The position numbers were made by a program, and so were the translations under genes. The notes beneath the pieces were generated by a model. It ran no database searches. It worked only from the letters and a program-made list of their open reading frames with translations, and was not told the origin of the DNA. DNA of 37,100 nucleotides, from the NCBI GenBank assembly GCA_023301565.1, contig JALZUO010000082.1:1-37100 (forward strand). The letters are read 5' to 3'. Numbering within the stretch: the stretch's first letter is position 1; each line of letters starts with the position of its first letter. Positions 19,447 to 36,425 of the stretch are shown piece after piece. Source of the stretch: Oligoflexales bacterium (GTDB lineage Bacteria > Bdellovibrionota_B > Oligoflexia > Oligoflexales > JALZUQ01).

Positions 19447-20226
19447 ATGTCTAAAAAAGCCTTGGTATTGGTAAAGCCAACACCGGATACAGAAGCGCAA
19501 ATAGCACCGGGTTCTGACGGAGCATCGGTAGATACGGCATCTCTTACGCACGTAATCAACCCGTATGATGAGTTTGCAATCGAAGAAGCACTTCTCCTCA
19601 AAGAAAAAGGAGAGTTTGAAGAAGTAGTTGTAGCAAGTTTTTGTGAACCGTCGCGCAAAGATGTGGTTGTTAAGGCGTTGGCTATGGGCGCCGACCGCGG
19701 GGTGATCATTGATAGCACGGGTACAAACTGTGATTCACTTTCTATAGCTAGGGTATTTGCAAAATTAGTAGCAAAAGAATCACCGTCGGTTGTGTTTGGC
19801 GGCAAGCAAGCTATTGACGATGACAACATGCATGTTTTGACTATGCTTGGTGAAATCGCAAACCTTCCAACTATTAATGTAGTGAGCAAGGTGGAGCCTG
19901 GCGAAGGTAGCTGGAAGATTCACCGTGAAGTTGAAAATGGGCAAAAAGAAATTTACGAAGTGACTCTGCCGTGTGTGATTGGGGCTCACAAGTCTTTGAA
20001 TACACCTCGCTATACGAACCTTCGTGGCATCATGCAAGCTAAAAAGAAGCCCTTTGAAGTCATAGCTGCAGCAGAGCTTGGTCTTGAAAACACTAGTCAG
20101 GTAAAACTACTAAAAGTTAGTATGCCTCCTGAAAAACCGCCTGGAAAGCTTTTCAAGGATGAGCCCATCGAAGAGATGGTTAGCAAGGTTGTGGAGCTGC
20201 TTCGCAGTGAAGCTAAAGTGATTTAA
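19447..20226 (+). CDS. etfB: Electron transfer flavoprotein beta subunit
   Basis: 259 aa, with a strong AAAGGAGG site ~7 nt before the ATG. EtfB with EtfA accepts electrons from acyl-CoA dehydrogenases and passes them to ETF-quinone oxidoreductase. It shows KALVLVKPTPDTE, HVINPYDEFAIEEAL, GKQAIDDDN (adenine-nucleotide binding region) and LPCVIGAHKSLNTPRYTNLRGI, which includes the dehydrogenase recognition-loop region. TATAAA at 19415-19420 may be its -10. etfA follows after 70 nt. Confidence 0.97.
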   Translation: MSKKALVLVKPTPDTEAQIAPGSDGASVDTASLTHVINPYDEFAIEEALLLKEKGEFEEVVVASFCEPSRKDVVVKALAMGADRGVIIDSTGTNCDSLSIARVFAKLVAKESPSVVFGGKQAIDDDNMHVLTMLGEIANLPTINVVSKVEPGEGSWKIHREVENGQKEIYEVTLPCVIGAHKSLNTPRYTNLRGIMQAKKKPFEVIAAAELGLENTSQVKLLKVSMPPEKPPGKLFKDEPIEEMVSKVVELLRSEAKVI

Positions 20227-20296
20227 TGGGTTTTAGTACAGTGGTTATTTAAAATTTTCGGGCTCCCAGTAGATGGGGCCGTTGATGAGGGAATAA

Positions 20297-21271
20297 ATGA
20301 AAGTATTAGTATTTCTAGAGCAGCGTGAAGGCAAGTTTAGGTCCATTTGCAACGAAACCCTAACGATTGCTAAAAGCTTGGCTGGCGATGGCGGCTCGGT
20401 TGCAGGTGTAGCGGTTGGTTCTGGTTTGGAATCAGCAGATAGTCTTTCGAGTTTTGGCCTGCAGACGCTGCTTAAAGCAGAAGGCGACTCTTGCAGCAGC
20501 TACAATGTAATAACCTACGCAAAAGCAGTTGCCGCTGCAGCTAGCTCTTGGGGAGCAGACTGCATTCTTGGTGGGGCTACGCCCATGGGTAAAGATGTTC
20601 TTCCGCGGGTTGCAGCAAAGCTTGGAAGCGCTATAGCTTCGGATGTTACAAGTGTTACGGCGGGTTCTGGCGGCGGCACTAACCTAGAGGTTACAAAACC
20701 TCTTTTTGCCGGAAAAGTTGTTGGTACCTACGAACTTTCGGGCAGTGCCCCAAAGGTCGTAAGTGTGCGGCCAAACTCTATGCCTGCTGTAGCTGGCGGC
20801 GCTGGCAGTATTGATGTTCAGGCTGTAGAGGCGCCTGCTGCAGACGACCGGTTAAAACTAGTAGAGATGGTTAAAAGCGACTCTGAGAAGGCTGACCTTA
20901 CAGAGGCTTCTATTATTATCTCTGGTGGCCGCTCACTAGGTTCAGAAGAGAACTTTAAGATCCTTGAAGATTGCGCCGATGTTTTGGGTGCAACCGTCGG
21001 TGCTTCGCGAGCAGCAGTGGATTCCGGGTACGCTCCGCACAGCATGCAAGTCGGTCAAACCGGTAAAACAGTAAACCCAAATTTATATATTGCCTGCGGA
21101 ATTAGTGGTGCTATTCAGCATCTAGCTGGAATGCGTACATCGAAGTTTATTGTAGCGATTAACAAAGATGAGAACGCGCCTATATTTAAAATTGCAGATT
21201 ACGGCATCGTGGCCGATCTTTTTGAGGTCGTCCCAGCTTTGCAAACAAAGCTACAAGCTTTGAAAGGGTAG
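20297..21271 (+). CDS. etfA: Electron transfer flavoprotein alpha subunit
   Basis: 324 aa, usual length, with GAGGG 5 nt before the ATG. The C-terminal FAD domain is unmistakable: IISGGRSLGSEENF, GATVGASRAAVDSGY, QVGQTGKTVNPNLYIACGISGAIQH and AINKDENAPIFKIADYGIVAD. The N-terminal domain is Gly/Ala/Ser rich and shorter in motifs. It pairs with etfB upstream to form the soluble FAD/AMP heterodimer of fatty-acid and amino-acid oxidation. msrB follows after 6 nt, suggesting read-through. Confidence 0.97.
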   Translation: MKVLVFLEQREGKFRSICNETLTIAKSLAGDGGSVAGVAVGSGLESADSLSSFGLQTLLKAEGDSCSSYNVITYAKAVAAAASSWGADCILGGATPMGKDVLPRVAAKLGSAIASDVTSVTAGSGGGTNLEVTKPLFAGKVVGTYELSGSAPKVVSVRPNSMPAVAGGAGSIDVQAVEAPAADDRLKLVEMVKSDSEKADLTEASIIISGGRSLGSEENFKILEDCADVLGATVGASRAAVDSGYAPHSMQVGQTGKTVNPNLYIACGISGAIQHLAGMRTSKFIVAINKDENAPIFKIADYGIVADLFEVVPALQTKLQALKG

Positions 21272-23194: not shown

Positions 23195-23992
23195 TTAATA
23201 GTACTCAGGGACGATCACCTGGAATCCGTCGCCGTTGTCTATGGTTTTTATTCCATAGTTTGCAGGGGCTTGAAAGGTAATGGGTTGTTGGGTATGAGCT
23301 TGTGGAGTTAGAGGCTGTTGTGAGGCGTTTGCAAGAAAGTGCTGCCAATCCCCCGTAGAACGATAGTTTGCATCTACGGCTCTTTGCAATGCATCCAGGT
23401 CACCTTGGGTGAGTTGCTGTTTTGAAGCGTCTGTAGCGCCCATGATTTCCCTGTTGTCTTGCCGTGGAGCCCCTGGAGCTCCCACGCAATTAGCACTAGC
23501 TTTATCTGTGTATTGATCACACAAACCAAAACTATGCCCAAGCTCATGAAGGAGCATTGCATCTAAATAGGCCCCTGACACCTGTGAGCTTATTTCAATC
23601 GTGCCATCATCAAATCGGCCATTATCAGGCTCGCCTAGATTGAGTCGATAGATATTGCAGGCTGGCGAGCCTTGGCATCTATTTATTGCGGTTAAATTAA
23701 TTCTTAAGTTAGACCCGGTATTGCAAGGGTTAATGTTTAAATGTCCGTTCCTACCGATGGGGGTAAGCCATTTGGCTACCGCTCGTTCTGCCGCTTGGAT
23801 TTGGTCTTGCCTTTGCCCACAAAACTCTAAGGACTCACCTGGCCTAAGGCTCATAATGTTCGCATGAGTTCCAAAGCCTGTGTGTAGGTCACCCCTTAGC
23901 CCAGATTCACTAGAGCTAATTTTGCAAGAAGAGAGGCTAGCTAAAAATGCTAACAATAGAAAAATATAATTTTTGAGTGACGGGTTTCTCAC
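23195..23992 (-). CDS. Lipoprotein zinc metalloprotease (HExxHxxGxxD type)
   Basis: 265 aa from GTG 23992, with GGAG 6 nt upstream. The lipoprotein signal is NYIFLLLAFLASLSSC with lipidated Cys23. The catalytic motif LLHELGHSFGLCD has the HExxH zinc site, with Gly and a third-ligand Asp as in snapalysin-like metzincins. QVSGAYLDAMLLHELGH before it is typical of the active helix. Two Cys pairs may form disulfides. It would be tethered to the outer or inner membrane and cleave proteins or peptides outside the cytoplasm. The C-terminal tail is Gln/Pro rich. The gene is convergent with copy 2 of the repeat. Confidence 0.87.
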   Translation of the reverse strand: MRNPSLKNYIFLLLAFLASLSSCKISSSESGLRGDLHTGFGTHANIMSLRPGESLEFCGQRQDQIQAAERAVAKWLTPIGRNGHLNINPCNTGSNLRINLTAINRCQGSPACNIYRLNLGEPDNGRFDDGTIEISSQVSGAYLDAMLLHELGHSFGLCDQYTDKASANCVGAPGAPRQDNREIMGATDASKQQLTQGDLDALQRAVDANYRSTGDWQHFLANASQQPLTPQAHTQQPITFQAPANYGIKTIDNGDGFQVIVPEYY

Positions 23993-24064: not shown

Positions 24065-24101
24065 TTAAGAAAACAAAAACAGGGCCTTAGCAGCCCTGTT
24101 T
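24065..24101 (-). terminator. Intrinsic terminator of the ten-gene run
   Basis: On the minus strand, AAACAGGGC (24101-24093) and GCCCTGTTT (24085-24077) form a perfect 9-bp stem with loop TGCTAAG. It is followed by a T-rich tract (TTGTTTTCTT), 30 nt after the last stop. Confidence 0.85.
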
Positions 24102-24131
24102 AGAAAAATGTGTTAGCTGAAAAATAGGCTT

Positions 24132-24824
24132 TTACCAGGGAATCTGCTTGCCCTCATAGTCAAAGAACAGCCCCGAGTCTTTGCTGCTTAGGCCGCTAAT
24201 GACTTTGTTTATGCCTTTGGCAGACATCTCTGGAGTCACAGGTGCTTTTTCGCCGCCCATTTCTGTTTGTACCCAGCCCGGGTGCATCACAGCACTGGTT
24301 ATCTCTGGGTACTCTAGGCTGATGTTTTTGCTCAGCATGTTTAGAGCTGTTTTAGAAATACGGTAAGCGTAAGCTCCGCCACTTGAGTTGTCGGCGATAG
24401 ATCCGACTTTGCTGCTGACGTGGATTAATTTTGGGTTAGAAGATTTTTTTAAGGCTGGAAGTAGGGCCTGGGTGATTCTAAGCGGTCCATTGACGTTTAT
24501 ATCAAAGATAGAAGAAAGCTCAGCGGGGTCCAAGTCTGCAAGTTTGGTTTGGTAGCCAGACAGCGCGCCCGCGTTGTTGATTACAACATCGATCGCCTCG
24601 TTCGTATTTTGAATATCTTCTCCAAGCGCTTTTACTTCTTCTGGCTTAGTGACGTCTACCTGGTGAACGTGAAGCTTGTCCGGAAAGCCGCTCATTAGGT
24701 TTGTAACCTCGTCGTTTGGCTTGCGAATAGTTCCGTGTACGGTAAAGCCTTGTTTTAGATAGGTCTTAGCAAGTTCTAGTCCAATGCCTCTGCTAATTCC
24801 TGTGATCGCTACTGATTGGGTCAT
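24132..24824 (-). CDS. C-factor (CsgA)-like short-chain dehydrogenase
   Basis: 230 aa from ATG 24824, which has GAGG 8 nt upstream; a GTG 9 nt earlier overlaps that site. SDR marks are TGISRGIG (8-15), VDVTKPEE, NNAG (83-86), Ser137 (HVSSKVG) and Y154-RIS-K158. The DINVNGPLRITQALLP segment and the GKQIPW end resemble the C-factor group of SDRs, known from myxobacterial signalling. Whether this one signals or is a plain oxidoreductase cannot be judged. It is the last gene of the ten-gene run, 27 nt after the HIT gene, just before a strong terminator. Confidence 0.87.
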   Translation of the reverse strand: MTQSVAITGISRGIGLELAKTYLKQGFTVHGTIRKPNDEVTNLMSGFPDKLHVHQVDVTKPEEVKALGEDIQNTNEAIDVVINNAGALSGYQTKLADLDPAELSSIFDINVNGPLRITQALLPALKKSSNPKLIHVSSKVGSIADNSSGGAYAYRISKTALNMLSKNISLEYPEITSAVMHPGWVQTEMGGEKAPVTPEMSAKGINKVISGLSSKDSGLFFDYEGKQIPW

Positions 24825-24851
24825 TTTTTTCACCTCTTTCGATTTTTTTAT

Positions 24852-25199
24852 CTAATTTGTTTTCAAGTCCCACCCTGGCAGCTTTTCTCCACCAAGGATG
24901 TGAGCGTGCAAATAAGGAACCGTTTGCCCGCCGTGCTCACCACAGTTAAAAACAACTCGGTATCCGTCTTCGTTTAGGCCTACTTTCGTTGCCACTTTGC
25001 TTATTGCTTGAAAGTAAGCTCCACTAAATTTAAGGTCCCAGGTTTCAATGTCAACCAGACTCGCAGCTTTTTTCTTTGGAATAACCAGTACGTGGATTTT
25101 TGCTAAAGGTGCAATGTCATGAAATGCCAGGCAAACATCGTCTTCATAAACTTTGCTGCAGGGTATTTCACCTGCTAATATTCGTTCAAATATGCTCAT
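24852..25199 (-). CDS. HIT-family nucleotide-binding hydrolase (HINT-like) with a variant His triad
   Basis: 115 aa from ATG 25199, which overlaps the ABC-transporter stop (ATGA). HIT enzymes hydrolyse nucleoside phosphoramidates and related adenylates. It shows IFERILAGEIPCSKVYEDD, HVLVIPKKK, HGGQTVPYLHAHILGG. The usual H-x-H-x-H is Y96-L-H98-A-H100: the first His is Tyr, while the middle nucleophilic His is kept, so activity is plausible. The length is typical for HINT. Tight coupling to the transporter may be incidental. Confidence 0.92.
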   Translation of the reverse strand: MSIFERILAGEIPCSKVYEDDVCLAFHDIAPLAKIHVLVIPKKKAASLVDIETWDLKFSGAYFQAISKVATKVGLNEDGYRVVFNCGEHGGQTVPYLHAHILGGEKLPGWDLKTN

Positions 25200-26950
25200 G
25201 GTTTCCACAGCGAAAGCTCTCCTTTGTCAAGCATCCAAACGTGGTCAAACACCTCTAGGTTAGCTCTGTTATGCATTGAAAATATGTACACTGATGTAGG
25301 ACAAACGAGTTTTTTCATATGTTCCAATATTCTTCTTTCCTGCTTGGGTGGCAGGGCCGAAAAACCCTCGTCAACTAAAACGAGTGTGTTTTCTAGCATG
25401 CGCATAATCCTTGCTAGAGCAACTCTTTGGTGTTCGCCGCCAGATAAACTTTTTTCCCAGATGTCGACCATGTAGCTTTTGGACTCAAGTGCAACACCTA
25501 TGTTTGGAAGTGAGTCAGCCTCGGCTAGCTTAAGCATGACTTCTATCTCTTCTTTAGAAAGGGTGCTTCGATCACCATCGTTTTTGTCTCCACTTAAAAA
25601 ATCTCGCAGGGTAAGCGGCCCCAAAACAACTTTTTGCGGTAGAAACCGGATCCTTGAAACATTTTCGGGGGCTAGTATGCGCCCCTTCGAGACCCAAGGC
25701 CAAACCTTAGCTAAAGCCCTCATTAAAGTGGACTTGCCAGAGCCACTTACACCAAGGATGGCATGCATGCAGCCTGGAGCAAACTCTGCACTAAGCATTT
25801 CAGCAATGGATGTCCCTGTAGGCGTAGCTAAGCTTAAGTTTTCTATACTAAGGTTTGATGTTTCGCTTTTTGCATAAAATTTCAGAGAGTTTTCTTGCTC
25901 AAAAATATTTTGCGCTTCTTGCAACCGCCTGACCGCGACTTTTGCCCTCAAAAGATGGTTGTACTGACGGGCAATTTTACCGAAAACCTGACCTAGGATC
26001 GCCAGGCAAGCCATGAAGCTAAAAAAAGCTTCTGCATCTATTTGATAGCTAGATTTTAATAGCATTACGACCCCAAGCAGTCCGGCAGAGGCCACCACCG
26101 AGACAAACTCTATGCTCGGGTTTAGCTTTGATTCGGTCCTTGCAAGGCGCACTTCGGCCTTCTCTAGGCTTTCAAGTTTTTGCCCAAAAAGCGTAGACTC
26201 CAAAGCTTCAGTCCTATGGTGCTTGATCGTCGTAATCCCCTGCATGCGTTTTTGCAGCCATCCGAGGGTGTCATTGGCCGATTCAAGGCTAACCTTTTGC
26301 CTGCCAGGAATCTTTTTGCGAAAATAGCGCGTGATCAAAGCCAATAAAGGCGCAACCCCCAGAATGATCAGCAGATACATGGGGCTAATATACACCAGCA
26401 GCAACAGGAGTAAGACGCCTAGAATGATTTGAATGGGCATGCTGATGTATACGTTCATGATCAGGTTCATGACGTCACGAAACTCTCGGCCGAAAAACTG
26501 TAGCACGCCCTGTTGTTTTTCCTGGTAAGAGAGCTCGCTAAAGTTCGCTGATTTTCCAGAAAAAAATGAGCGCAACACATCTTGGCGAACATGGTGGGAA
26601 ACTCGTTCGCCCATATAAAGCGACGTCCAATTGTGAGTCCACTGAAAACAAAACTTTGCAAGTGCTAACCCAAAAAGTGCGAGTGGAAAAAGCCAATAAA
26701 ATTCCTTTTGACTTATGCTGTCGGTTTTAAATCCAGCGAGCAGCAGGTTTGCAATTGGACCAAAATCTGTAGAAAGGCGCACACCTGTTTCGGGTACTCC
26801 GTTTTGGATGATTTTAAATGCTGGGCCTGCGATGCTCGCAAAAACAGTTGTGATGATGGCACTAAGAAACCCAAAAAAATAAGCCGCCCAGACAGCGGGC
26901 GACTTTATAAGACCGAAATACTCAATCTTTTTTAGGAAGTTTTCGTTCAT
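25196..26950 (-). CDS. ABC transporter, fused permease-ATPase (exporter type)
   Basis: 584 aa, one half-transporter. The N-terminal part has about six membrane segments (for example AAYFFGFLSAIITTVFASIAG and SMPIQIILGVLLLLLLVYISP). The ATPase domain has Walker A GVSGSGKST (400-408), Q-loop Gln439 (LPQK), signature SLSGGEHQRVALAR (501-514), Walker B LVLVDE (523-528) and H-loop His560 (FSMH). It forms a homodimer exporting a lipid, peptide or drug. It is not close enough to MsbA to name the substrate. The start ATG overlaps the ClpP stop (ATGA), and the HIT gene overlaps its own stop. Confidence 0.93.
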   Translation of the reverse strand: MNENFLKKIEYFGLIKSPAVWAAYFFGFLSAIITTVFASIAGPAFKIIQNGVPETGVRLSTDFGPIANLLLAGFKTDSISQKEFYWLFPLALFGLALAKFCFQWTHNWTSLYMGERVSHHVRQDVLRSFFSGKSANFSELSYQEKQQGVLQFFGREFRDVMNLIMNVYISMPIQIILGVLLLLLLVYISPMYLLIILGVAPLLALITRYFRKKIPGRQKVSLESANDTLGWLQKRMQGITTIKHHRTEALESTLFGQKLESLEKAEVRLARTESKLNPSIEFVSVVASAGLLGVVMLLKSSYQIDAEAFFSFMACLAILGQVFGKIARQYNHLLRAKVAVRRLQEAQNIFEQENSLKFYAKSETSNLSIENLSLATPTGTSIAEMLSAEFAPGCMHAILGVSGSGKSTLMRALAKVWPWVSKGRILAPENVSRIRFLPQKVVLGPLTLRDFLSGDKNDGDRSTLSKEEIEVMLKLAEADSLPNIGVALESKSYMVDIWEKSLSGGEHQRVALARIMRMLENTLVLVDEGFSALPPKQERRILEHMKKLVCPTSVYIFSMHNRANLEVFDHVWMLDKGELSLWKP

Positions 26951-27522
26951 TTTTTTATTTCAGAGACGCTCTCTATGACAGACCCTACCAAGCCATACTC
27001 CAGAGCTTCTTTGGCACTCATCCAGTAGTCTCTACGGGTATCTTTTTCGACCTTTTCAAGCTTCTGTCCGCATGCTTTGGCAAGCATGCCGTTTAGCTTC
27101 GCTCTGGTTTTTTCGATCTCTATAGCGGTGATTTCTAGGTCGCTTGCCTGTCCGCGGATTTGACCTGCAATCAAAGGTTGGTGAATCATAAACTCACAGT
27201 TAGGTAGAGAGTACCTTCTTTCTTTCGGTACAGCCACATTGATAATGGTCGCTATACTTGCGCAAAGGCCAGTATTGACTACGTTCACAGGTGCTTTGAT
27301 TGCTTTAATCGCGTCATATATCGCAAAGCCAGAATGCACTTCACCACCAGGTGAGTTTTGAAAAAAAGTGATTGGGCTCGAAGAGTCATCTAAATCCATT
27401 GCAAACAAAGAGCCAATGATGGTTTTGGCTTGCTCTGCCGTTACGGCGCTTGATAAAAACAAGGTGCGATTTTCAAATAGTTTTTTCGCAACTCCTGCGG
27501 ACTCTATTGCTTTTTCAATCAT
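26947..27522 (-). CDS. ClpP-family serine protease, divergent paralogue
   Basis: 191 aa, GGAG before the ATG. The catalytic triad is present: Ser89 in GLCASIATI, His114 in EFMIHQPL, Asp161 in EKDTRRDYWMSAKEAL. NSPGGEVHSGFAIYDAI matches the ClpP oxyanion region. It differs from typical housekeeping ClpP in the active-site helix (CASIATIINVAV) and the N-terminal residues. There is no clpX beside it. It is inferred to be a specialised paralogue or a peptidase working with a chaperone elsewhere. It sits 8 nt after the M48 gene and overlaps the ABC gene by 4 bp. Confidence 0.9.
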   Translation of the reverse strand: MIEKAIESAGVAKKLFENRTLFLSSAVTAEQAKTIIGSLFAMDLDDSSSPITFFQNSPGGEVHSGFAIYDAIKAIKAPVNVVNTGLCASIATIINVAVPKERRYSLPNCEFMIHQPLIAGQIRGQASDLEITAIEIEKTRAKLNGMLAKACGQKLEKVEKDTRRDYWMSAKEALEYGLVGSVIESVSEIKK

Positions 27523-27530
27523 GGAATCTC

Positions 27531-28802
27531 CTAAGCGTTATTGTTTTCCAATGCCTTCAGCGCTGCCAGCCTTTCAATGATCGGTGGATGCGAAAAGTAG
27601 AAACTAGAATACCATGGATGGGACAAAGGCACGGCCTTGTTCTCAGAACGCAGTTTCTTCAAGGCGTTGATAAGGTTGTCACTTGTACCAACATGCTCAT
27701 ATGCGAACTTATCCGCCGCAAATTCATTTTTTCTCGACAGCAAGGTAAAGACAGGGGTGAGCAGGAATTGCACAAGTCCCCACCAAAGACTGAAGACGAC
27801 CAGTGCTCCGTAATTGCTGACAGCGTCAAAACCAAAGGCTTTATAGAAAACTTCTAAGGGCAAACACTTACTCATGATAAACAACATAAGGCCTGTCATC
27901 ACAAACGACTGAATAAGGTTGTTGCGAACATGCTTTAGTTTAAAATGTCCGAGCTCATGTGCCAGTACAGAGACAATTTCTTTGGGAAGTAGGCTGTCTA
28001 CAAGAGTGTCGAATAAAACAATTCTTTTTTTGCCGAATATACCCGTAAAGTATGCGTTTCCGTGAGAGCTTCGCATCGAGGCATTCATGATGGATACTCC
28101 CGAGTTTTCAAACCCAACTTTGCCGCTCAACTCGTCGATGGACTCTTTGAGTTCGCCTTCTGGTAGCGGTTTGAACTTATTAAATAGTGGCGAGATCAAG
28201 GTCGGAAAAAGCCAGGTTGTCAAAACCATAAACCCAAACACAGCGGCCCAAGCATAGGCCCACCAGTTGGTTCCCATCTCTCCCATAATCCACAAAAGAA
28301 CCCCAAAAAATAGGCCTGCAAGCGGAAGTGCAATTAATAGTCCTTTAAGCCGGTCGGTAAAAAATATGGGTAACGTAGATTTGTTGAAGCCATGTTTTTC
28401 TTCTAAAACAAAGGTTTGGTAGTAGTCGAAGGGCAGCTGCATAAGCATTTGACCAAGATATAAAAATAAAAAGAAAAATAGGCCGGTGGCAACCTCACCA
28501 CCAAAACCACCTGCGCTGCTTTTGGCTATGCCCTCTAGCCAGCCAAAGCCACCTATCCAGATAAATACGATTAAAAAAACAAAGGAAAACCAAGAGGAGA
28601 GACGGCCAAAGTTGTATTTATCTTCTGCATAAGCAATCGAGGACTTTAAATCGGCGTGGTTTATGTTGAGGCTTTCGAGTGAGTTTTTTTGGTTGGTGCT
28701 GTCAAGGTAAAAAGACCTGTTGATACTCGCAAGGTAGCGGGTCAGTGCATATTGAAGCGTATAAAGTACAATAAAAATTTTTAAAACGGTCATGGTTTGC
28801 AT
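27531..28802 (-). CDS. M48 family integral-membrane metallopeptidase (Ste24/HtpX-like)
   Basis: 423 aa, the length of Ste24-type CAAX proteases. It has an N-terminal M48_N region with FDYYQTFVLEEKHGFNKST, at least five membrane spans, and the zinc motif VLAHELGHFKLKH (H282, E283, H286). RKNEFAADKFA supplies the third ligand. Such enzymes degrade or process membrane proteins. A SHPWYSSFYFSHPP segment near the end is typical. The start ATG at 28802 is 4 nt after the kinase stop, implying co-translation with the kinase. Confidence 0.93.
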   Translation of the reverse strand: MQTMTVLKIFIVLYTLQYALTRYLASINRSFYLDSTNQKNSLESLNINHADLKSSIAYAEDKYNFGRLSSWFSFVFLIVFIWIGGFGWLEGIAKSSAGGFGGEVATGLFFFLFLYLGQMLMQLPFDYYQTFVLEEKHGFNKSTLPIFFTDRLKGLLIALPLAGLFFGVLLWIMGEMGTNWWAYAWAAVFGFMVLTTWLFPTLISPLFNKFKPLPEGELKESIDELSGKVGFENSGVSIMNASMRSSHGNAYFTGIFGKKRIVLFDTLVDSLLPKEIVSVLAHELGHFKLKHVRNNLIQSFVMTGLMLFIMSKCLPLEVFYKAFGFDAVSNYGALVVFSLWWGLVQFLLTPVFTLLSRKNEFAADKFAYEHVGTSDNLINALKKLRSENKAVPLSHPWYSSFYFSHPPIIERLAALKALENNNA

Positions 28803-28806
28803 TATC

Positions 28807-30399
28807 TCAATCAGCCTTTCTGTTGCTGCTTTCTCTAAGTACTTGATCTAAGGCTTCGAAAAGAGCTTTTTTACCGCAGCCTTTAGTTATTAGTTTGTTT
28901 GCTCCAGCATTCGCAGCTATATCTTTAAACTCTCGCTGTTCATCTGCCGTATAAATAACGATAGGAACAGGCACGTTGTTTTTCGTTTGGATCTTTTTTG
29001 CCCTAATCTCTTCGCAAGTAGCAAAGCCGTCTAACATCGGCATTTGCCTATCCAATACAATGAGATCGTATTGTTTTTTGTCAACCACCTCTAGTGCTGT
29101 TTTTCCACTGGTAACGACGTTTACTTTGTGTCCCTCGTTTTCCAAAATTCTTTGAAATAGCAGGCAGTTAGCCGGGTCATCGTCTGCCATCAATATGTTC
29201 AAAGGGTTTGCAGCTAGCTTAGAGATGTGGGTAGGTATCTGAAATACTTCAGCGCCTTGAGGCTGAGCGTTCTGCTCAGACCCTGCCTTTTCCAGCCTAA
29301 GGCTAAACTTGAATGTAGACCCTATGCCAAGTTTTGACTCTAGGCTCAGTGTGCCTCCCAGAGCTTGCAAGAGGCTCTTTGTGATTGCTAGCCCCAACCC
29401 AACGCCGCGGACATGCTGTACGCTGCTGTTTTGAATTTGATTGAATTGCTCAAAGATCCGGCTTTGGTCCGCTTTTGCAATGCCAATGCCACTGTCAGAA
29501 ACCTCAGCTGCAAACCTACACTGGCCATTTTCAGCGGGGCTCAGCTCAACCGCTATCTTCACGTAGCCTGTTTCCGTAAACTTAATGGCGTTTCCAACTA
29601 GGTTCGTGAAGACTTGATAAAGTTTTAGCTCATCTACAGACACCATTTCAACATCATCAAAAAATGTTTCAAAATGCAGTTTCAGCCCTTTACGTGCAGC
29701 CAAGGGGGCAAGAGCAGCGTGAAGTTTAGAAAAGAACTCTGGCAATAAAACAGGTCTTGGGTGCAGAGTTTGATTTCCGGTTTCCAGCTTTGAAAAGTCC
29801 ATGGTTTGATAGACTATACTCTGCAGGTGTTTCATAGCCCCTTCGCCTATTTTAAGCCAGTCTTTTAGTTTGCTTACTGACTTTTCTGCCTTCATTTCAT
29901 TGAAGGTCTCTTGCATGGCAACAAGTGAGTTTTTGATCTCATGCGAAACACTTGCAAAGCCATCCAAAAAATTTGAGCGTTGCTGGCTTTGTAACTCGAC
30001 CGAGTGCTGCAAGGCTTCTACTAAAAGCTTAAGGTTATTTCTGCTTTGTTGGACATCAAATATTTGGACAGCTTTTTCACTAGAATCTTTTAGAAACACA
30101 ATGTGCTGATTGTTTTCAAATACAATCAAAATATCAGCATAGACTTTTGCGTCAAGCCTAACGTGTTCAAGGAAAAGAGGCTCAGCTTCTACAATGTTTG
30201 CATCTAAAAGACCAAACAGTGCAAGCACGTGCTCTTCAGTGGCCTGTCCTACCTGTGGTTTTTTAACACCAAAGTAGTCAAAGTCGCCGCCCCATTGAAC
30301 AAGCGCTCCTTTTTTGTCTGTGATTAAATAGCAAGCTTTCCATTCAGTGCCAAAAAACTCTAAGAATTTTTCTCGAATCTCAAAAGGAAAATTAAGCAT
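28807..30399 (-). CDS. Soluble hybrid histidine kinase with C-terminal receiver
   Basis: 530 aa. Residues 1-110 are a PAS-like sensor (ACYLITDKKGALVQWGG... YADILIVFENNQHIVFLKD), with no membrane segment. The kinase core has His153 (FASVSHEIKNS), N box NLVGNAIKFTE, G1 DSGIGIA (302-308), F box IFEQF and G2 RGVGLGLAIT. The receiver (about 400-525) has D406-408, phospho-acceptor Asp450 (LIVLDRQMP), T484 and K506. Phosphate would pass His153 to Asp450 and on to an unseen partner. It overlaps the GTPase gene by 8 bp, so the two are probably made together. The sensor may read the GTPase state (inference). Confidence 0.92.
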   Translation of the reverse strand: MLNFPFEIREKFLEFFGTEWKACYLITDKKGALVQWGGDFDYFGVKKPQVGQATEEHVLALFGLLDANIVEAEPLFLEHVRLDAKVYADILIVFENNQHIVFLKDSSEKAVQIFDVQQSRNNLKLLVEALQHSVELQSQQRSNFLDGFASVSHEIKNSLVAMQETFNEMKAEKSVSKLKDWLKIGEGAMKHLQSIVYQTMDFSKLETGNQTLHPRPVLLPEFFSKLHAALAPLAARKGLKLHFETFFDDVEMVSVDELKLYQVFTNLVGNAIKFTETGYVKIAVELSPAENGQCRFAAEVSDSGIGIAKADQSRIFEQFNQIQNSSVQHVRGVGLGLAITKSLLQALGGTLSLESKLGIGSTFKFSLRLEKAGSEQNAQPQGAEVFQIPTHISKLAANPLNILMADDDPANCLLFQRILENEGHKVNVVTSGKTALEVVDKKQYDLIVLDRQMPMLDGFATCEEIRAKKIQTKNNVPVPIVIYTADEQREFKDIAANAGANKLITKGCGKKALFEALDQVLRESSNRKAD

Positions 30400-30883
30400 G
30401 CAAACCCACCATCCTTTTTGTTAGGTCGCTAAAACTGTTTTCGACATTGTTCCCAGTTTTTGCACTCGTCTCTAGAATTGGAATGTTCCAGTCTTTGATC
30501 CGTTTGTAATCAGCTTCTGTTAGCTGCCAAGCATCCTTCAAGTCTGCTTTGTTGATTAAAAGAATCGACGGTTTTGCGTCGTCATTTTTTTTTATTGTTT
30601 CTTCTACAAAATCAATGGTCGAAGGCCTAGTGCCGTCGATAACATACAGAAATCCATGTGAGCCCCTGCTGTAGGTGCCAATCATCCCGCGGCTGTCGCT
30701 ACCACCAGCTATGTCCCAGATCAGTAGGTCCGAAGAAATATCCCCAACGGTCACATTTTTTTTATCTATTTTTACTCCAACTGTTGTAAGGTAGCTTTCC
30801 GAAAACACGCTACTTACGTACTGAGAGACAAGGCTGGTTTTGCCCACAGAAAATTGGCCAACCATACACACTTTAAATTTCAT
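30392..30883 (-). CDS. Ras-like small GTPase (Rab/MglA-type)
   Basis: 163 aa, one G domain with GAGG-type site 4 nt before the ATG. G1 is GQFSVGKTS (9-17), G2 the switch-I TTVGVKI (33-39), G3 WDIAGG (56-61), G4 NKAD (111-114) and G5 ETSAKTG (138-144). The Ras Gln61 position (AGQ) is Gly here, which should slow intrinsic hydrolysis and make the protein depend on a partner. No lipidation site or membrane anchor is present. It lies between the membrane protein gene (13 nt) and the hybrid kinase gene (8-bp overlap), which makes those two its likely regulator and effector. Confidence 0.93.
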   Translation of the reverse strand: MKFKVCMVGQFSVGKTSLVSQYVSSVFSESYLTTVGVKIDKKNVTVGDISSDLLIWDIAGGSDSRGMIGTYSRGSHGFLYVIDGTRPSTIDFVEETIKKNDDAKPSILLINKADLKDAWQLTEADYKRIKDWNIPILETSAKTGNNVENSFSDLTKRMVGLHA

Positions 30884-30896
30884 GAAACCTCTTTTT

Positions 30897-32309
30897 TTAG
30901 TTTGATCGCACTTCAGACATGTTGACTTCGTTTAATCCGGGCACTCCAACGGCAGCAGCCGACGCTGTTTTTTTCCAGTCTCTTGTGGCCTTACCGCTTA
31001 GTTTAAGTACCCCTCGGCCAGAAACAAATACTTTGACGGAGCCAGGAGGGTTTGTTTTTTGGCTGAACCTACGGCGTACAATTTCCATATCAGCTGAAAG
31101 ATAATCTGCAAAGCTCATGTCGACGTGCTCTGTTACGCCACTGCGTTCTGCAAGCTTTAACGCGTTCGCTGCAAGCGGATCTTTTAGCCCTCGAAGGTGG
31201 AGTTTCGGTGGTTTTCCTATGGTCTTAGAACTTGTCAGGGCGATCCCAGGCTCTCTAGCCAGGATTCTTTCAAAGTTTGTTAGCTTTTTTGCTATCTCTT
31301 TGTTTGCCCGAGAACCAGCTATCTGCTGCCAAAAGAAAAATCCCAATGCGCCAATGGCTAGTGCCAGCAGAGCATATTGAACAAGCTTTAGCTTTTTCTT
31401 TTTTGATTCTTGGTCGGTCTTTTCTTCTGTTGAATATTGCTCTTCAAAGCAGTCATCTAAGGTCTCTATGATTTCTTGCTTTTTTCTTTCATCAAGGTCT
31501 CCTTGAAACGAGCGCATGGCGTTGTTTTGTTCTTTGTGCAGCTTCTCCATGAGTAGCTGCATTTTTCCGCGAAGACTCGAAGGAGCCTCTCCACGGATCA
31601 CTGCTGCTAAAAACGCATGTGGCCCTCTTTCGACCCATACAGTGGTCTCGCCGACTGCAAGCGAGCGTATCCCGGCGTGGTTGTCTTCTTGGAATGCATC
31701 TCTAGCAAAATCTTGGATAGCGCTAAACATACTTGATACCATGTCAGAGTCTGAGACAGAATCGCTAGATACGTTTGGATTTACAATGTGTTCAATCAGA
31801 AGGCCCGTATCTTTGTGTACTAAAAAAAGATGCTCCACGCGATATACTAGAGAGTTCAAAAGGACGATCTCTGAATATGATTTTCCGGTTAGAATGGACT
31901 CCGCTCGCCATTTCAGGCCCTTAAAAGACATAGACTCTTCGACGACTCTGTTTGTATTCTGGACCATTTTTCGAAAAGTCTCTGACACTGACCTTCTAAT
32001 CGCCGGGCCTATGATAGGGAAAATGATATCTGTGATGATCCCAGGGTTTTCGCGGACAGATTCTTCCATGGCTAGCTCAATGGTTGGTTTAAGTTTTTTT
32101 CCAAAATATTGAGGGTTTTTCTTTAAGTTTAAATCAAATGCACCCGGAAGCGCATCGGCGATCTTTTCAGGTGTGATCCTACTGGCTTCTTCTTCTGCTT
32201 GGAGGATTTTTTGTTCGATAGCTGCTTGTTGTTTTTTAAACAGTAGCTCTTTTAGTTCGGAAAGATCAGAGGTGAGGCTTGGACTGTCTTTAGTAGTTTT
32301 TCCACTCAT
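30897..32309 (-). CDS. Membrane protein with roadblock/longin-like region and BON-like tail
   Basis: 470 aa. Residues 15-60 are a helical lead. Residues ~75-140 carry PGIITDIIFPIIGPAIRRS. Residues ~150-245 (VYRVEHLFLVHKDTGLLIEHI, DMVSSMFSAIQDFARDAF, VGETTVWVERGPHAFLAAVIRG) have the strand-helix-strand order of roadblock/longin folds that regulate small GTPases. This is a visual match only. Residues 307-330 form the single membrane span. Residues 340-466 include a BON-like end (VKVFVSGRGVLKLSGKA...VPGLNEVNM). It resembles a family I recall as often carrying an OmpA domain, absent here. The N-terminal half should be cytoplasmic, next to the GTPase, and the tail periplasmic. Confidence 0.75.
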   Translation of the reverse strand: MSGKTTKDSPSLTSDLSELKELLFKKQQAAIEQKILQAEEEASRITPEKIADALPGAFDLNLKKNPQYFGKKLKPTIELAMEESVRENPGIITDIIFPIIGPAIRRSVSETFRKMVQNTNRVVEESMSFKGLKWRAESILTGKSYSEIVLLNSLVYRVEHLFLVHKDTGLLIEHIVNPNVSSDSVSDSDMVSSMFSAIQDFARDAFQEDNHAGIRSLAVGETTVWVERGPHAFLAAVIRGEAPSSLRGKMQLLMEKLHKEQNNAMRSFQGDLDERKKQEIIETLDDCFEEQYSTEEKTDQESKKKKLKLVQYALLALAIGALGFFFWQQIAGSRANKEIAKKLTNFERILAREPGIALTSSKTIGKPPKLHLRGLKDPLAANALKLAERSGVTEHVDMSFADYLSADMEIVRRRFSQKTNPPGSVKVFVSGRGVLKLSGKATRDWKKTASAAAVGVPGLNEVNMSEVRSN

Positions 32310-32701
32310 CCGTTGCTAGCAATCATTTCAGCTAGTTTAGAAAACGCATTGGCAATCGAGGTTTTATCGGCCTTGCTTGTGCTAAGAGTTTCAAAACTTG
32401 ATTGGATTGAGTCACGGGCACTCGAAGACTGCGATAGTTTTTCTAAGATAGAAGCTTTGTGTGAGCTCTGCTCAGCTTTTAGTTCAGAAAGAGAGGTTTT
32501 TAGTTGGTTCAAAGCTTCCTTGAGCTCACCGATAGAATTGCTAGATTCTGCTTTTATTTTTTCTAGCTCTGCTCTGTGCTCATTTTTTAACTTTTCTAGG
32601 TTAGTTTGGAAAAGCTCTTCCAAAGATTTCTGCCGAGAATCTTGTTCTTGTTTATAGTGACCTAAGATGATTTCTCGTACCCGAGAGAGTTCGTCGCTCA
32701 A
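32306..32701 (-). CDS. Small coiled-coil protein
   Basis: 131 aa, TTG start at 32701 with AAGGA ~10 nt upstream; no ATG is available in frame. Almost the whole chain is one long charged helix with heptads (LSRVREIIL, LEELFQTNLEKLKNEHRAELEKIKAE and LKEALNQLKTSLSELKAEQ). The last 30 residues (SKADKTSIANAFSKLAEM) form a small helical end. It has no signal or membrane segment. It overlaps the next gene by 4 bp (ATGA), so it is probably made with the membrane protein and may act as its cytoplasmic scaffold. Confidence 0.78.
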   Translation of the reverse strand: MSDELSRVREIILGHYKQEQDSRQKSLEELFQTNLEKLKNEHRAELEKIKAESSNSIGELKEALNQLKTSLSELKAEQSSHKASILEKLSQSSSARDSIQSSFETLSTSKADKTSIANAFSKLAEMIASNG

Positions 32702-32720
32702 TGAAATTCCATCCTTCTTA

Positions 32721-33500
32721 TTATCTAAGATCTAAGTTTTGTAAGCCCGCTAAGTGAAGACTTTCTTTTAGCGCACTCTCGCGTAAAAACTCAAGGTTAT
32801 CGGTGAATAGAACGTTCTCATAATGCCCAATTACATTGCTTTGGCTGTCTAGTGTAGCATCAATTGACGAGGAAACACCTATGACTCTTTTATTTACGAG
32901 CATGGGCCCACCTGAGTCACCAGGTAGGTTGGCTACGTCTTGGCCAGTCCCTTGGCCGTTGTTACCCTGGTTTTTATGGTGTCCACTAAAGTCAAACCTG
33001 CGCCCTACGCTATCAAGAGTGTTTGTCCCCATGCGCTTGTGTCCGTCTGTAGTGGATGCGTAGAAGTTAAACTTGCCATAGCCTACGATTGTGAACTTTT
33101 GACCGGGAACAGGCTCTGTGGCGGCAATAGGGAATATGTCTTTAAAGGTGTTGTTTGGAAACTTAACCAGGGCGATATCGTGAAAGCCAGTACCAGAACC
33201 AAACTCAGGGTGAAGAAAACAGTCAACTGAAACAACCCCTTCGTATTTGCCTTTTACAATTTCAACGGCCTCCGCTTTGGGCCCAAAAAAATCAAGGCAA
33301 TGTGCCGCTGTCAAAAGAGAGTTGTGGCCAACGATGGTAGCAGTACACGCGGCACCTTGGCTTCCGTATGTAGAGTAAATTTTAACCACTTCAGGGAACA
33401 CAGACTCGGCGATGATTTTGCCATTAGCTATATATTTTTCTGCCAGCACGCCCTGGCAAAAAAACAACATGGAACTCAGAAGCCATATCCGTAGCATCAT
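32721..33500 (-). CDS. Secreted S1 (trypsin-like) serine protease
   Basis: 259 aa. A signal peptide (about 1-20, LRIWLLSSMLFFCQGVLA) precedes a chymotrypsin-fold domain without a long pro-region. The triad is His67 (LTAAHC), Asp108 (FHDIALVKF) and Ser196 (LPGDSGGPM). The Asp-loop region before Ser196 (TGQDVANL) differs from trypsin, so a trypsin-type P1 preference is uncertain. Bacterial S1 proteases of this type are often secreted by predatory or soil bacteria. It is the first gene after the operon promoter, 19 nt before the coiled-coil gene. Confidence 0.93.
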   Translation of the reverse strand: MMLRIWLLSSMLFFCQGVLAEKYIANGKIIAESVFPEVVKIYSTYGSQGAACTATIVGHNSLLTAAHCLDFFGPKAEAVEIVKGKYEGVVSVDCFLHPEFGSGTGFHDIALVKFPNNTFKDIFPIAATEPVPGQKFTIVGYGKFNFYASTTDGHKRMGTNTLDSVGRRFDFSGHHKNQGNNGQGTGQDVANLPGDSGGPMLVNKRVIGVSSSIDATLDSQSNVIGHYENVLFTDNLEFLRESALKESLHLAGLQNLDLR

Positions 33501-33523
33501 AGGTCGCCCATTTCATAATCATT

Positions 33524-33554
33524 GGTCAGCTGAATAGTTTTGCTCTAGCTGATC
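33524..33554 (-). promoter_or_regulatory. Inverted repeat in the 5' leader of the ten-gene run
   Basis: GGTCAGCT (33524-33531) and AGCTGATC (33547-33554) can pair over 8 bp (one G-U) with a 15-nt loop, between the inferred start site and the ATG at 33500. It could be an operator or an mRNA hairpin. Confidence 0.4.
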
Positions 33555-33580
33555 GGTGAAATTACTAAGATTATTATTAT

Positions 33581-33610
33581 ATTATACTAATTAACAAGGT
33601 GTGTATGCAA
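33581..33610 (-). promoter_or_regulatory. Promoter of the ten-gene run
   Basis: Minus strand TTGCAT (-35, 33610-33605), 18-bp spacer, perfect TATAAT (-10, 33586-33581). Transcription would start near 33574, about 74 nt before the protease ATG. Confidence 0.6.
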
Positions 33611-35063: not shown

Positions 35064-36425
35064 CTAATTAATACCCTGTATTAATAGTGACTTGCCTCCG
35101 ACCATCACTCGCCCTTTGATGCCTGTGGTGCCGCCTTGTTTGAGAAGCGTTCTTCCGTAAGCTGCCTTAAAAAAGATTCCTTTGACCGTCCCGTTTCGAC
35201 CTTTGAAAGAAATCGTACATTTCCCACTGCACTTTTTCACTGCATTGGTGTCGTATCTAAGCGGGCCTATGCTTACCTGGGAGCCAACCTTTGACCTCAG
35301 GCCGGCAACCGAGCCAAGCGTGGTCCTAGGTATAGTCCTTTTTACAACTTTTTTTGCTGGGATTTTTTTGATTTTTTTGCTTGGCGCTTTTTTAACGGCA
35401 GCTTTTACTTTTTTTGGCGTTGCTATTTGTAAGGAGGCGGCAGCTTTTTGTGGCCGAACCACAGGCGGCGTAATAATGGGCCGGCTAAGCGCAGGGCTAA
35501 GTGTTTGCCGCTGCTGAACGATCTGAGGTTTAAACGGGGTGCGCACAGCCGGTTTTTCTACGGAGCGAATGGGCGGAACATTTTGAATCTGCCCGCTACG
35601 CCCAGTCCTTGGTTGCTGCACATTTGGTTTTGCTTTTAAAAAGAAGTCGTAGGCTAAAATAGACATAATCAATGCGCATAGGGCCACAAATGCAATAGCA
35701 AGCCACTGCGAGCTGTCTGGTGATTTTAGTACAAAAATACTTTTGCCGCTGGCCATAGGGTGGATCAGAGATCTTTGTGGTCCTTTTGCGGCTAACCTCT
35801 GTTTGTATTGTGCGACAAACTTTTGAATATGTAGCCGAGCTTTGTAGCCGTTTCTTATCACGTAAGAACGTTTTGATATGTTTCCTCTTTTAAACTCCGC
35901 AATGATTTCTGGTGCATGAAAAGGGCCCCAAAACTTTCCTTTATGCGTGACATAAAACGGCTTCATGTTTTGTCGGAAGTCTTCAGGTGGTTTTGACGAC
36001 GGCGTGTCTCTATGCACCGCAGCGCCACCAAAGTAGCCTTGTGAAACACTGGTGCCGTGCCCTGACATGGAAGATACCTGGATCGAGTGGTTTTCAAACT
36101 CGGCGCTGCTGGCTCTGCTTTGCTCTAAGTCTCTTTTTTCTCGTCTGGCCTCTTGTCTTTTTGTTTGCCTTACCGGCTCGTGGGCTCTTTCTGGCACAGC
36201 TCTTAGGGCTGGATCATGAGCGTTAGTGGTATCTGCCGAGTCAGTGTTGAATATTTCATCTATATCAATCAGGTTTTGCCGGAGGCTAGAAGATGCTTTT
36301 CCAACCTTATCGAACGGGTCAAGTTCGCCTAGCCGCAGAGCAGCACGTAGTTCGCTGGCACTAAAAGGCCCCAGCGTTTCACTGCCCCGGTAGATAAACC
36401 ATGAATTTTGTTCGAAATCAGTCAT
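35064..36425 (-). CDS. GYF_2-domain membrane protein with Lys/Pro-rich tail
   Basis: 453 aa, AGGAG 3 nt before the ATG. Two GYF_2-like units are seen: WFIYRGSETLGPFSASELR (about 9-27) and YVTHKGKFWGPFHAPEIIAEF (about 158-178). Between them lies a charged Arg/Glu-rich linker. Residues ~244-266 form a single membrane span (AIAFVALCALIMSILAYDFFL). A basic Pro/Lys/Val-rich stretch and a C-terminal globular domain (about 380-453, KKCSGKCTISFKGRNG) follow. The GYF_2 units should be cytoplasmic and bind peptides, while the tail lies outside. The function is unknown. An inverted repeat lies just upstream. Confidence 0.82.
   Translation of the reverse strand: MTDFEQNSWFIYRGSETLGPFSASELRAALRLGELDPFDKVGKASSSLRQNLIDIDEIFNTDSADTTNAHDPALRAVPERAHEPVRQTKRQEARREKRDLEQSRASSAEFENHSIQVSSMSGHGTSVSQGYFGGAAVHRDTPSSKPPEDFRQNMKPFYVTHKGKFWGPFHAPEIIAEFKRGNISKRSYVIRNGYKARLHIQKFVAQYKQRLAAKGPQRSLIHPMASGKSIFVLKSPDSSQWLAIAFVALCALIMSILAYDFFLKAKPNVQQPRTGRSGQIQNVPPIRSVEKPAVRTPFKPQIVQQRQTLSPALSRPIITPPVVRPQKAAASLQIATPKKVKAAVKKAPSKKIKKIPAKKVVKRTIPRTTLGSVAGLRSKVGSQVSIGPLRYDTNAVKKCSGKCTISFKGRNGTVKGIFFKAAYGRTLLKQGGTTGIKGRVMVGGKSLLIQGIN

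What the first reader, a model, noticed from the sequence alone, without database searches (positions are those of the whole stretch)
24065..33610. Ten-gene run built around a Ras-like GTPase, with protease, export and kinase genes
Ten minus-strand genes lie between one promoter (33581-33610) and one terminator (24065-24101). Gaps are 19, -4, 13, -8, 4, 8, -4, -4 and 27 nt, so four of nine junctions overlap. The order is S1 protease, coiled coil, membrane/BON-like protein, GTPase, hybrid kinase, M48 protease, ClpP paralogue, ABC exporter, HIT, C-factor-like SDR. The combination of three proteases in different compartments with a GTPase, a kinase and an exporter is not a system I know. It may sense the envelope and control processing and export.
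Basis: partly seen in the sequence, partly recalled or inferred. Interest (0 to 1): 0.85.

Follow-up and report, generated by a model that had tools for sequence, protein, structure and literature searches.

The report
Four-gene Rup GTPase signalling module
Inside the ten-gene run is a four-gene signalling module, built around a Rab-like molecular switch, that is conserved across at least a dozen bacterial phyla; the protease, exporter and metabolic genes around it are chance neighbours in this genome, and the module's "unknown" membrane protein is predicted to carry the same fold as known switch regulators.

Summary
The ten ORFs and all nine gaps are real, but there is no ten-gene system. In the one sampled genome of the same family, the coil/membrane/GTPase genes, M48, and ClpP-ABC-HIT lie on three different contigs. 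In the order, ClpP-ABC normally follows a priA gene. Around 80 homologues of the membrane protein, no M48, ClpP or HIT gene was found in 1.18 Mb of flank.

The conserved unit is four genes: coiled coil, 470-aa membrane protein, GTPase, hybrid kinase. This is the uncharacterised "Group 1 Rup" neighbourhood of Wuichet & Søgaard-Andersen (2014). In at least 12 phyla the coil precedes the membrane protein in 78/79 loci and the GTPase follows in 65/76; distances of the two proteins correlate (r=0.81).

New here: AlphaFold/Foldseek gives the membrane protein's unknown domain a roadblock/longin fold (MglB, Ragulator, Mon1-Ccz1), plus BON-like periplasmic domains. The kinase N-terminus is a PAS domain with a Gln conserved in 62/64 outputs, while the GTPases lack the catalytic Gln (1/57 has it). 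This lineage lacks the usual OmpA domain. Likely working: a membrane-anchored roadblock/longin regulator sets the GTPase state, and the GTPase controls a swappable output through its PAS. That step is inferred.

The parts
32306..32701 (-). Core gene 1: cytoplasmic coiled-coil protein, 131 aa (TTG start); short compared with about 190-260 aa in most relatives
   Evidence: ORF; a homologue directly upstream of the membrane protein in 78 of 79 testable loci
30897..32309 (-). Core gene 2: 470-aa inner-membrane protein: helical N-terminal region, roadblock/longin-like domain, transmembrane helix, BON-like periplasmic domains; no OmpA domain
   Evidence: AlphaFold model pLDDT 84.9, Foldseek, Pfam scan of 62 homologues
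31512..31877 (-). Roadblock/longin-like domain of the membrane protein (residues ~145-266)
   Evidence: Order of secondary-structure elements and Foldseek matches to Asgard Roadblock3, MglB, Ragulator, Mon1-Ccz1, AP sigma and Sec22b; the residue range is inferred from the model, not printed by Foldseek
30900..31244 (-). BON-like periplasmic region (residues ~356-470)
   Evidence: Foldseek matches to OsmY, DolP, BonA and CdsD; PF04972 in 2 of 62 homologues only
30392..30883 (-). Core gene 3: Ras/Rab-like small GTPase (Rup), 163 aa; intact G1, G4 and G5 motifs; Gly instead of Gln at the Ras Gln61 position; no C-terminal CAAX motif
   Evidence: PF00071 E=4e-28; closest solved structures are Rab35, Rab1 and Rab25; motif counts
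28807..30399 (-). Core gene 4 (output): soluble hybrid histidine kinase, PAS - HisKA - HATPase - receiver, 530 aa
   Evidence: Pfam; model of the N-terminus pLDDT 88 with PAS matches
30085..30384 (-). PAS-like adaptor domain of the kinase (residues ~6-105); the conserved Gln118 lies in the helix that follows it (codon 30046-30048)
   Evidence: Gln in 62 of 64 outputs
32721..33500 (-). S1 trypsin-like secreted protease; not part of the conserved unit
   Evidence: PF00089; homologues in 2 of the 92 loci held at that point
27531..28802 (-). Ste24-type M48 membrane protease; not part of the unit
   Evidence: PF16491/PF01435; in 35 of 38 order-level genomes; the four relatives' sites read in detail have other neighbours
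26947..27522 (-). ClpP paralogue; part of a separate ClpP-ABC unit
   Evidence: In 37 of 38 genomes; next to ABC in many, usually behind a priA-like gene
25196..26950 (-). MsbA-like ABC exporter; part of a separate ClpP-ABC unit
24852..25208 (-). HIT protein; follows ClpP-ABC also in the same-family genome
   Evidence: L103
24132..24833 (-). Short-chain dehydrogenase; not part of the unit
24077..24101 (-). Intrinsic terminator after the SDR gene
26881..26905 (-). Second terminator-like hairpin inside the start of the ABC gene

Best explanation
Genes 2-5 of the run (coiled coil, membrane protein, GTPase, hybrid kinase) form a Group 1 Rup-type signalling module in an OmpA-less variant; the other six genes belong to separate units that became adjacent in this lineage. 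Shown by computation: the four-gene order is conserved across many phyla, membrane protein and GTPase co-vary, the predicted folds, and the complementary Gln pattern. Inferred mechanism: the membrane protein spans the inner membrane, with BON-like domains (and OmpA in most relatives) on the envelope side and a roadblock/longin-like domain on the cytoplasmic side. With the coiled coil it binds the GTPase and sets its nucleotide state, as MglB does for MglA or Mon1-Ccz1 for Rab7. The loaded GTPase binds the PAS/signalling-helix region of the output protein and switches it; here the output is a histidine kinase with its own receiver, elsewhere a sigma-54 activator, nucleotide cyclase, SpoIIE phosphatase or HD-domain protein. 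The conserved Gln of the output may complete GTP hydrolysis in trans, as Wuichet and Sogaard-Andersen suggested.
For: Four-gene order: coil upstream 78/79, GTPase downstream 65/76, output domain after the GTPase 53/64, in loci of Myxococcota, Acidobacteriota, Gemmatimonadota, Verrucomicrobiota, Planctomycetota, Nitrospirota, Desulfobacterota, Pseudomonadota, Latescibacterota, Coatesbacteria, Calditrichota, Bacteroidota and Cyanobacteriota (record titles). Distances of membrane protein and GTPase correlate at r=0.81 (n=67; best of 1000 permutations 0.23). The 2014 paper describes the same four genes. Fold: model, Foldseek (Roadblock3 E=3.8e-4, MglB, Ragulator, Mon1-Ccz1:Ypt7, AP sigma with TM 0.70). 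PAS. Gln at the Ras-61 position in 1/57 GTPases, Gln118 in 62/64 outputs. Swappable outputs in 51 proteins: HATPase 15, sigma-54 activation 11, cyclase 8, SpoIIE 6, HD 5. PAS-only outputs: 146 aa in the same-family genome, 131 aa followed by a separate kinase in L070.
Against: No interaction or enzymatic test exists. The roadblock/longin assignment rests on a predicted structure: profile-profile comparison with PF03259-type proteins gave no support (hhalign probability 0.5%, no better than the GTPase control), and the weak PF19036 longin hit occurs in 1 of 62 members only. Placement of this GTPase in the paper's Group 1 was not tested by a tree. In the same-family genome the GTPase lies about 5 kb downstream of the coil/membrane pair and its output is PAS-only.
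Confidence: 0.85

Rival explanations
1. The ten genes are one functional system that senses the envelope and controls protein processing and export.
For: Compact arrangement with short gaps or overlaps and a good terminator at the end.
Against: Order not conserved in the one same-family genome, where the parts lie on three contigs; no M48, ClpP or HIT gene in 1.18 Mb around about 80 related loci; ClpP-ABC has its own conserved neighbours, a priA-like gene and ETF genes; priA of this genome lies on another contig.
Confidence: 0.04
2. The four core genes are as described, but M48 (4 nt behind the kinase) is a lineage-specific recruit acting on the same pathway, like Ste24 on CAAX GTPases.
For: 4-nt gap between kinase and M48; Ste24-type N-terminal domain.
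Against: The GTPase ends ...KRMVGLHA with no C-terminal Cys/CAAX, so it is no Ste24 substrate of that kind; M48 is found in 35 of 38 genomes, 33 of which lack the membrane protein.
Confidence: 0.06
3. The core is right, but the membrane protein's roadblock/longin domain is only a scaffold (as in AP sigma or Ragulator), and the GTPase is controlled by the output protein or by the coil.
For: Foldseek matches include adaptor longins (AP sigma, COPI zeta) as well as GEF/GAP types; the conserved Gln sits in the output.
Against: Adjacency and co-variation of membrane protein and GTPase fit direct regulation equally well; nothing here separates the two.
Confidence: 0.35

Closest known systems
Group 1 Rup system (Wuichet & Sogaard-Andersen 2014, PMC4316618)
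   Same: Same four genes: cytoplasmic coiled coil, conserved unknown domain plus TM helix, Rup GTPase lacking Gln in G3, output kinase or other signalling protein with a conserved N-terminal Gln.
   Different: No C-terminal OmpA domain here (55 of 62 homologues have it at E<=0.01); short coil. The paper lists Rup as never coupled to MglB and the domain as unknown, whereas the model gives it a roadblock/longin fold; the output N-terminus is recognised as PAS; further output types (sigma-54, SpoIIE, cyclase).
MglA-MglB / actinobacterial conservon (CvnA-D)
   Same: Small GTPase plus roadblock-fold regulator plus histidine kinase, encoded together in the conservon.
   Different: GTPase is Rab-like; the regulator domain shows no sequence-level match to PF03259 and is fused to a TM helix and BON-like domains; the kinase is soluble and carries a receiver; the own genome has no PF03259 protein.
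Mon1-Ccz1-Rab7 / Ragulator-Rag (eukaryotes)
   Same: Rab-like or Rag GTPase with membrane-bound longin or roadblock regulator; fold matches.
   Different: No evidence of common descent or of GEF activity; bacterial inner membrane and two-component output.

Membership tests
Group 1 Rup system | Single-domain Ras-superfamily GTPase with canonical G1, G4, G5 but no Gln in G3 | tested here: met
   PF00071 E=4e-28; WDIAGG, NKAD, SAK; 1/57 aligned relatives has Gln
Group 1 Rup system | Neighbouring coiled-coil cytoplasmic protein | tested here: met
   32306-32701; homologues upstream of the membrane protein in 78/79 loci
Group 1 Rup system | Protein with the conserved unknown domain followed by an inner-membrane helix | tested here: met
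   About 30-36% identity to nearly all of 61 homologues; long helix 296-352 with a hydrophobic stretch in the model
Group 1 Rup system | C-terminal OmpA domain ('often', per the paper, so not strictly defining) | tested here: not met
   55/62 homologues match PF00691 at E<=0.01, the window protein does not; it ends after the BON-like region
Group 1 Rup system | Signalling output protein with an invariant Gln in its N-terminal region | tested here: met
   Hybrid kinase; Gln118, conserved in 62/64 outputs
Group 1 Rup system | Clusters with Group 1 in a phylogenetic tree of Rup GTPases | not tested
   The paper's sequence set was not loaded
Roadblock/LC7 family (PF03259) | Sequence match to the family profile | tested here: not met
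   No Pfam hit; none in the genome; hhalign probability 0.5%
Roadblock/longin fold superfamily | Beta-beta-alpha-beta-beta-beta-alpha core matching solved members | tested here: met
   Predicted model only:
Actinobacterial conservon | CvnA kinase, MglB homologue, CvnC, MglA-type GTPase | tested here: not met
   No PF03259 protein in the genome; GTPase is Rab-like by best PDB matches

The most novel reading that the evidence does not exclude
Rup GTPases, the bacterial GTPases nearest to eukaryotic Rab/Ras, are not regulator-less as tabulated in 2014. They form a widespread bacterial module in which a transmembrane roadblock/longin protein with an envelope-facing part controls a Rab-like GTPase, which in turn drives interchangeable outputs through a PAS adaptor: a prokaryotic counterpart in logic to Mon1-Ccz1-Rab or Ragulator-Rag.
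Probability: 0.55. Interest if true: 0.75.

Novelty: new variant of a known kind. Interest (0 to 1): 0.5.

Why it matters
Group 1 Rup GTPases are the prokaryotic GTPases most similar to eukaryotic Rab/Ras/Rho/Ran, and no experimental study of a Rup system was found in the papers searched. A predicted membrane-anchored roadblock/longin regulator and a PAS adaptor with a conserved Gln give concrete, testable partners, and bear on whether control of Rab-type GTPases by longin/roadblock proteins predates eukaryotes. It also removes a false lead: the protease and export genes should not be studied as part of this system.

Tried and rejected
Ten-gene system: rejected by synteny. Ste24-type M48 as processing enzyme of the GTPase: rejected, no CAAX motif. 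ClpP paralogue as partner of a neighbouring ClpA: the about 760-aa gene before ClpP proved to be PriA where checked (L103). Antiphage defence reading: PADLOC hits are weak domain-level matches only. Membership of the unknown domain in PF03259 by sequence: no support. PF19036 longin hit as independent evidence: seen in one member only, so discounted. PDB sequence search with the output PAS profile: nothing useful. Literature searches for a later description of the longin domain or any Rup experiment found nothing beyond the 2014 paper and a mention in PMC4915359. The organism's name is not given by the tools; absence of PF03259 in 56 genomes of the class would fit Bdellovibrio-like bacteria, but this was not tested.

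Full report
What was claimed and what is there. The ten minus-strand ORFs exist with the stated order, gaps and overlaps, and their families are as guessed. The promoter match is within chance for the region (16 found, 13.8 +/- 3.6 expected). The terminator at 24101-24077 is convincing, but an equally stable hairpin followed by a T-run lies at 26905-26881 in the beginning of the ABC gene. One transcript is therefore possible but not established.

The run is not a conserved unit. Of 38 order-level genomes, only the own genome and the single same-family genome hold the 470-aa membrane protein; one more genome of the class does. In the same-family genome the coil and membrane-protein genes and, 4.8 kb on, the GTPase are on contig 13, M48 on contig 1, and ClpP-ABC-HIT on contig 8. 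In most relatives read, ClpP precedes the ABC gene and follows a gene of about 755-780 aa, which is PriA by Pfam in L103 and has a similar N-terminus in L105, L106 and L110; in several the electron-transfer flavoprotein genes lie on the other side, and homologues of those genes lie at 19447-21271 in the window. In this genome priA is on another contig. The simplest reading (inference) is that the GTPase system and M48 came to lie in front of an older ClpP-ABC-HIT unit.

The conserved core is four genes. A tblastn search of plasmids showed the order coil, membrane protein with OmpA, Rab-family GTPase, cyclase on Mesorhizobium pWSM1497, the same on a Rhizobium replicon, and with a hybrid kinase on a Nostoc plasmid. 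A scan of bacterial genomes with an alignment of the membrane protein gave at least 458 relatives, of which 80 loci were kept. In the testable loci, the coil is upstream in 78/79, the GTPase downstream in 65/76, and a gene with the kinase's N-terminal domain after the GTPase in 53/64; pairwise distances of membrane protein and GTPase correlate at 0.81 against at most 0.23 in 1000 permutations. In about 1.18 Mb of flanking DNA no M48, ClpP or HIT homologue was found; S1, SDR and ABC homologues appear in 2, 2 and 3 loci. The loci kept are the best-scoring ones, so the counts describe closer relatives, not all Rup systems.

What the parts are. The GTPase is closest in sequence to Rab35, Rab1 and Rab25 among solved structures. 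Its nucleotide-binding motifs are intact, but the Ras Gln61 position is Gln in only 1 of 57 aligned GTPases, and the position of Ras Gly12 is Phe in 49 of 57, so hydrolysis by the standard Arg/Gln RasGAP chemistry is unlikely (inference). The membrane protein was modelled from 62 sequences at mean pLDDT 84.9. Foldseek against the PDB returns two main groups of matches: roadblock/longin proteins (Asgard Roadblock3, MglB, Ragulator subunits, Mon1-Ccz1 with Ypt7, AP sigma, Sec22b) and BON-domain proteins (OsmY, DolP, BonA). The first fits residues ~145-266, the second ~356-470, with a long helix that includes the membrane span between them. By sequence the first domain is not a recognisable PF03259 member. 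Most homologues end in OmpA (55/62 at E<=0.01); this one does not. The kinase N-terminus is modelled as a PAS domain followed by a signalling helix (pLDDT 88); Gln118 in that helix is conserved in 62/64 outputs. Outputs vary: histidine kinase, sigma-54 activator, cyclase, SpoIIE, HD. Some are PAS-only, including the one in the same-family genome and one followed by a separate kinase (L070). This makes the PAS region the constant link between GTPase and output (inference).

Comparison with what is known. The four genes are those described for Group 1 Rup GTPases by Wuichet and Sogaard-Andersen: coil, unknown domain with inner-membrane helix and often OmpA, GTPase without the G3 Gln, and an output with an invariant N-terminal Gln. 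They counted no Rup coupled to MglB. The present models suggest that a roadblock/longin-type partner is present but was not recognisable by sequence. No experimental study of a Rup system was found in the papers searched.

Working model and certainty. Shown by computation: the composition, conservation and co-variation of the four-gene core, the exclusion of the other genes on synteny grounds, the predicted folds, and the complementary Gln pattern. Inferred: that the membrane protein regulates the GTPase, that the GTPase acts on the output through the PAS region, that the Gln takes part in hydrolysis, and that the periplasmic part senses the envelope. The identification as a Group 1 Rup-type module is held at about 0.85 to 0.9; the specific regulatory direction at about 0.5.

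Noticed in passing
window 25196-27522; L103, L105-L108, L110-L114, L116: A second ClpP (about 55-60% identical across the order) is repeatedly next to an MsbA-like ABC exporter and often behind a priA-like gene; the same-family genome adds HIT. Why a ClpP and an exporter stay together is unexplained.
   Followed up: partly
window 26881-26905, minus strand: Terminator-like hairpin with T-run inside the first codons of the ABC gene (-15.8 kcal/mol); at relatives' ABC gene starts the best hairpins before a T-run ranged from -3.8 to -15.1 kcal/mol.
   Followed up: partly
L007 6857-9922, L008 6797-9862: In rhizobia the membrane protein is 1021 aa, with what looks like four tandem copies of the BON-like unit before OmpA.
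   Followed up: no
L102 11866-12303: In the same-family genome the GTPase is followed by a 146-aa PAS-only protein instead of a kinase.
   Followed up: partly
L117 2134-3834: In a genome of the same class the C-terminus of the membrane protein looks like a decayed OmpA domain (no Pfam match).
   Followed up: no
window 23195-23992, minus strand: Lipoprotein-like protein with a HELGHSFGLC zinc-protease-like motif and no Pfam match.
   Followed up: no
window 35064-36425, minus strand: GYF_2-domain protein with a long proline/lysine-rich linker, near an acyltransferase gene (fabD-like) and an L32-like ORF.
   Followed up: no
L115 (G021), 242-aa ORF: A more distant Ras-like GTPase (32% identical) without the coil and membrane partners nearby.
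   Followed up: no
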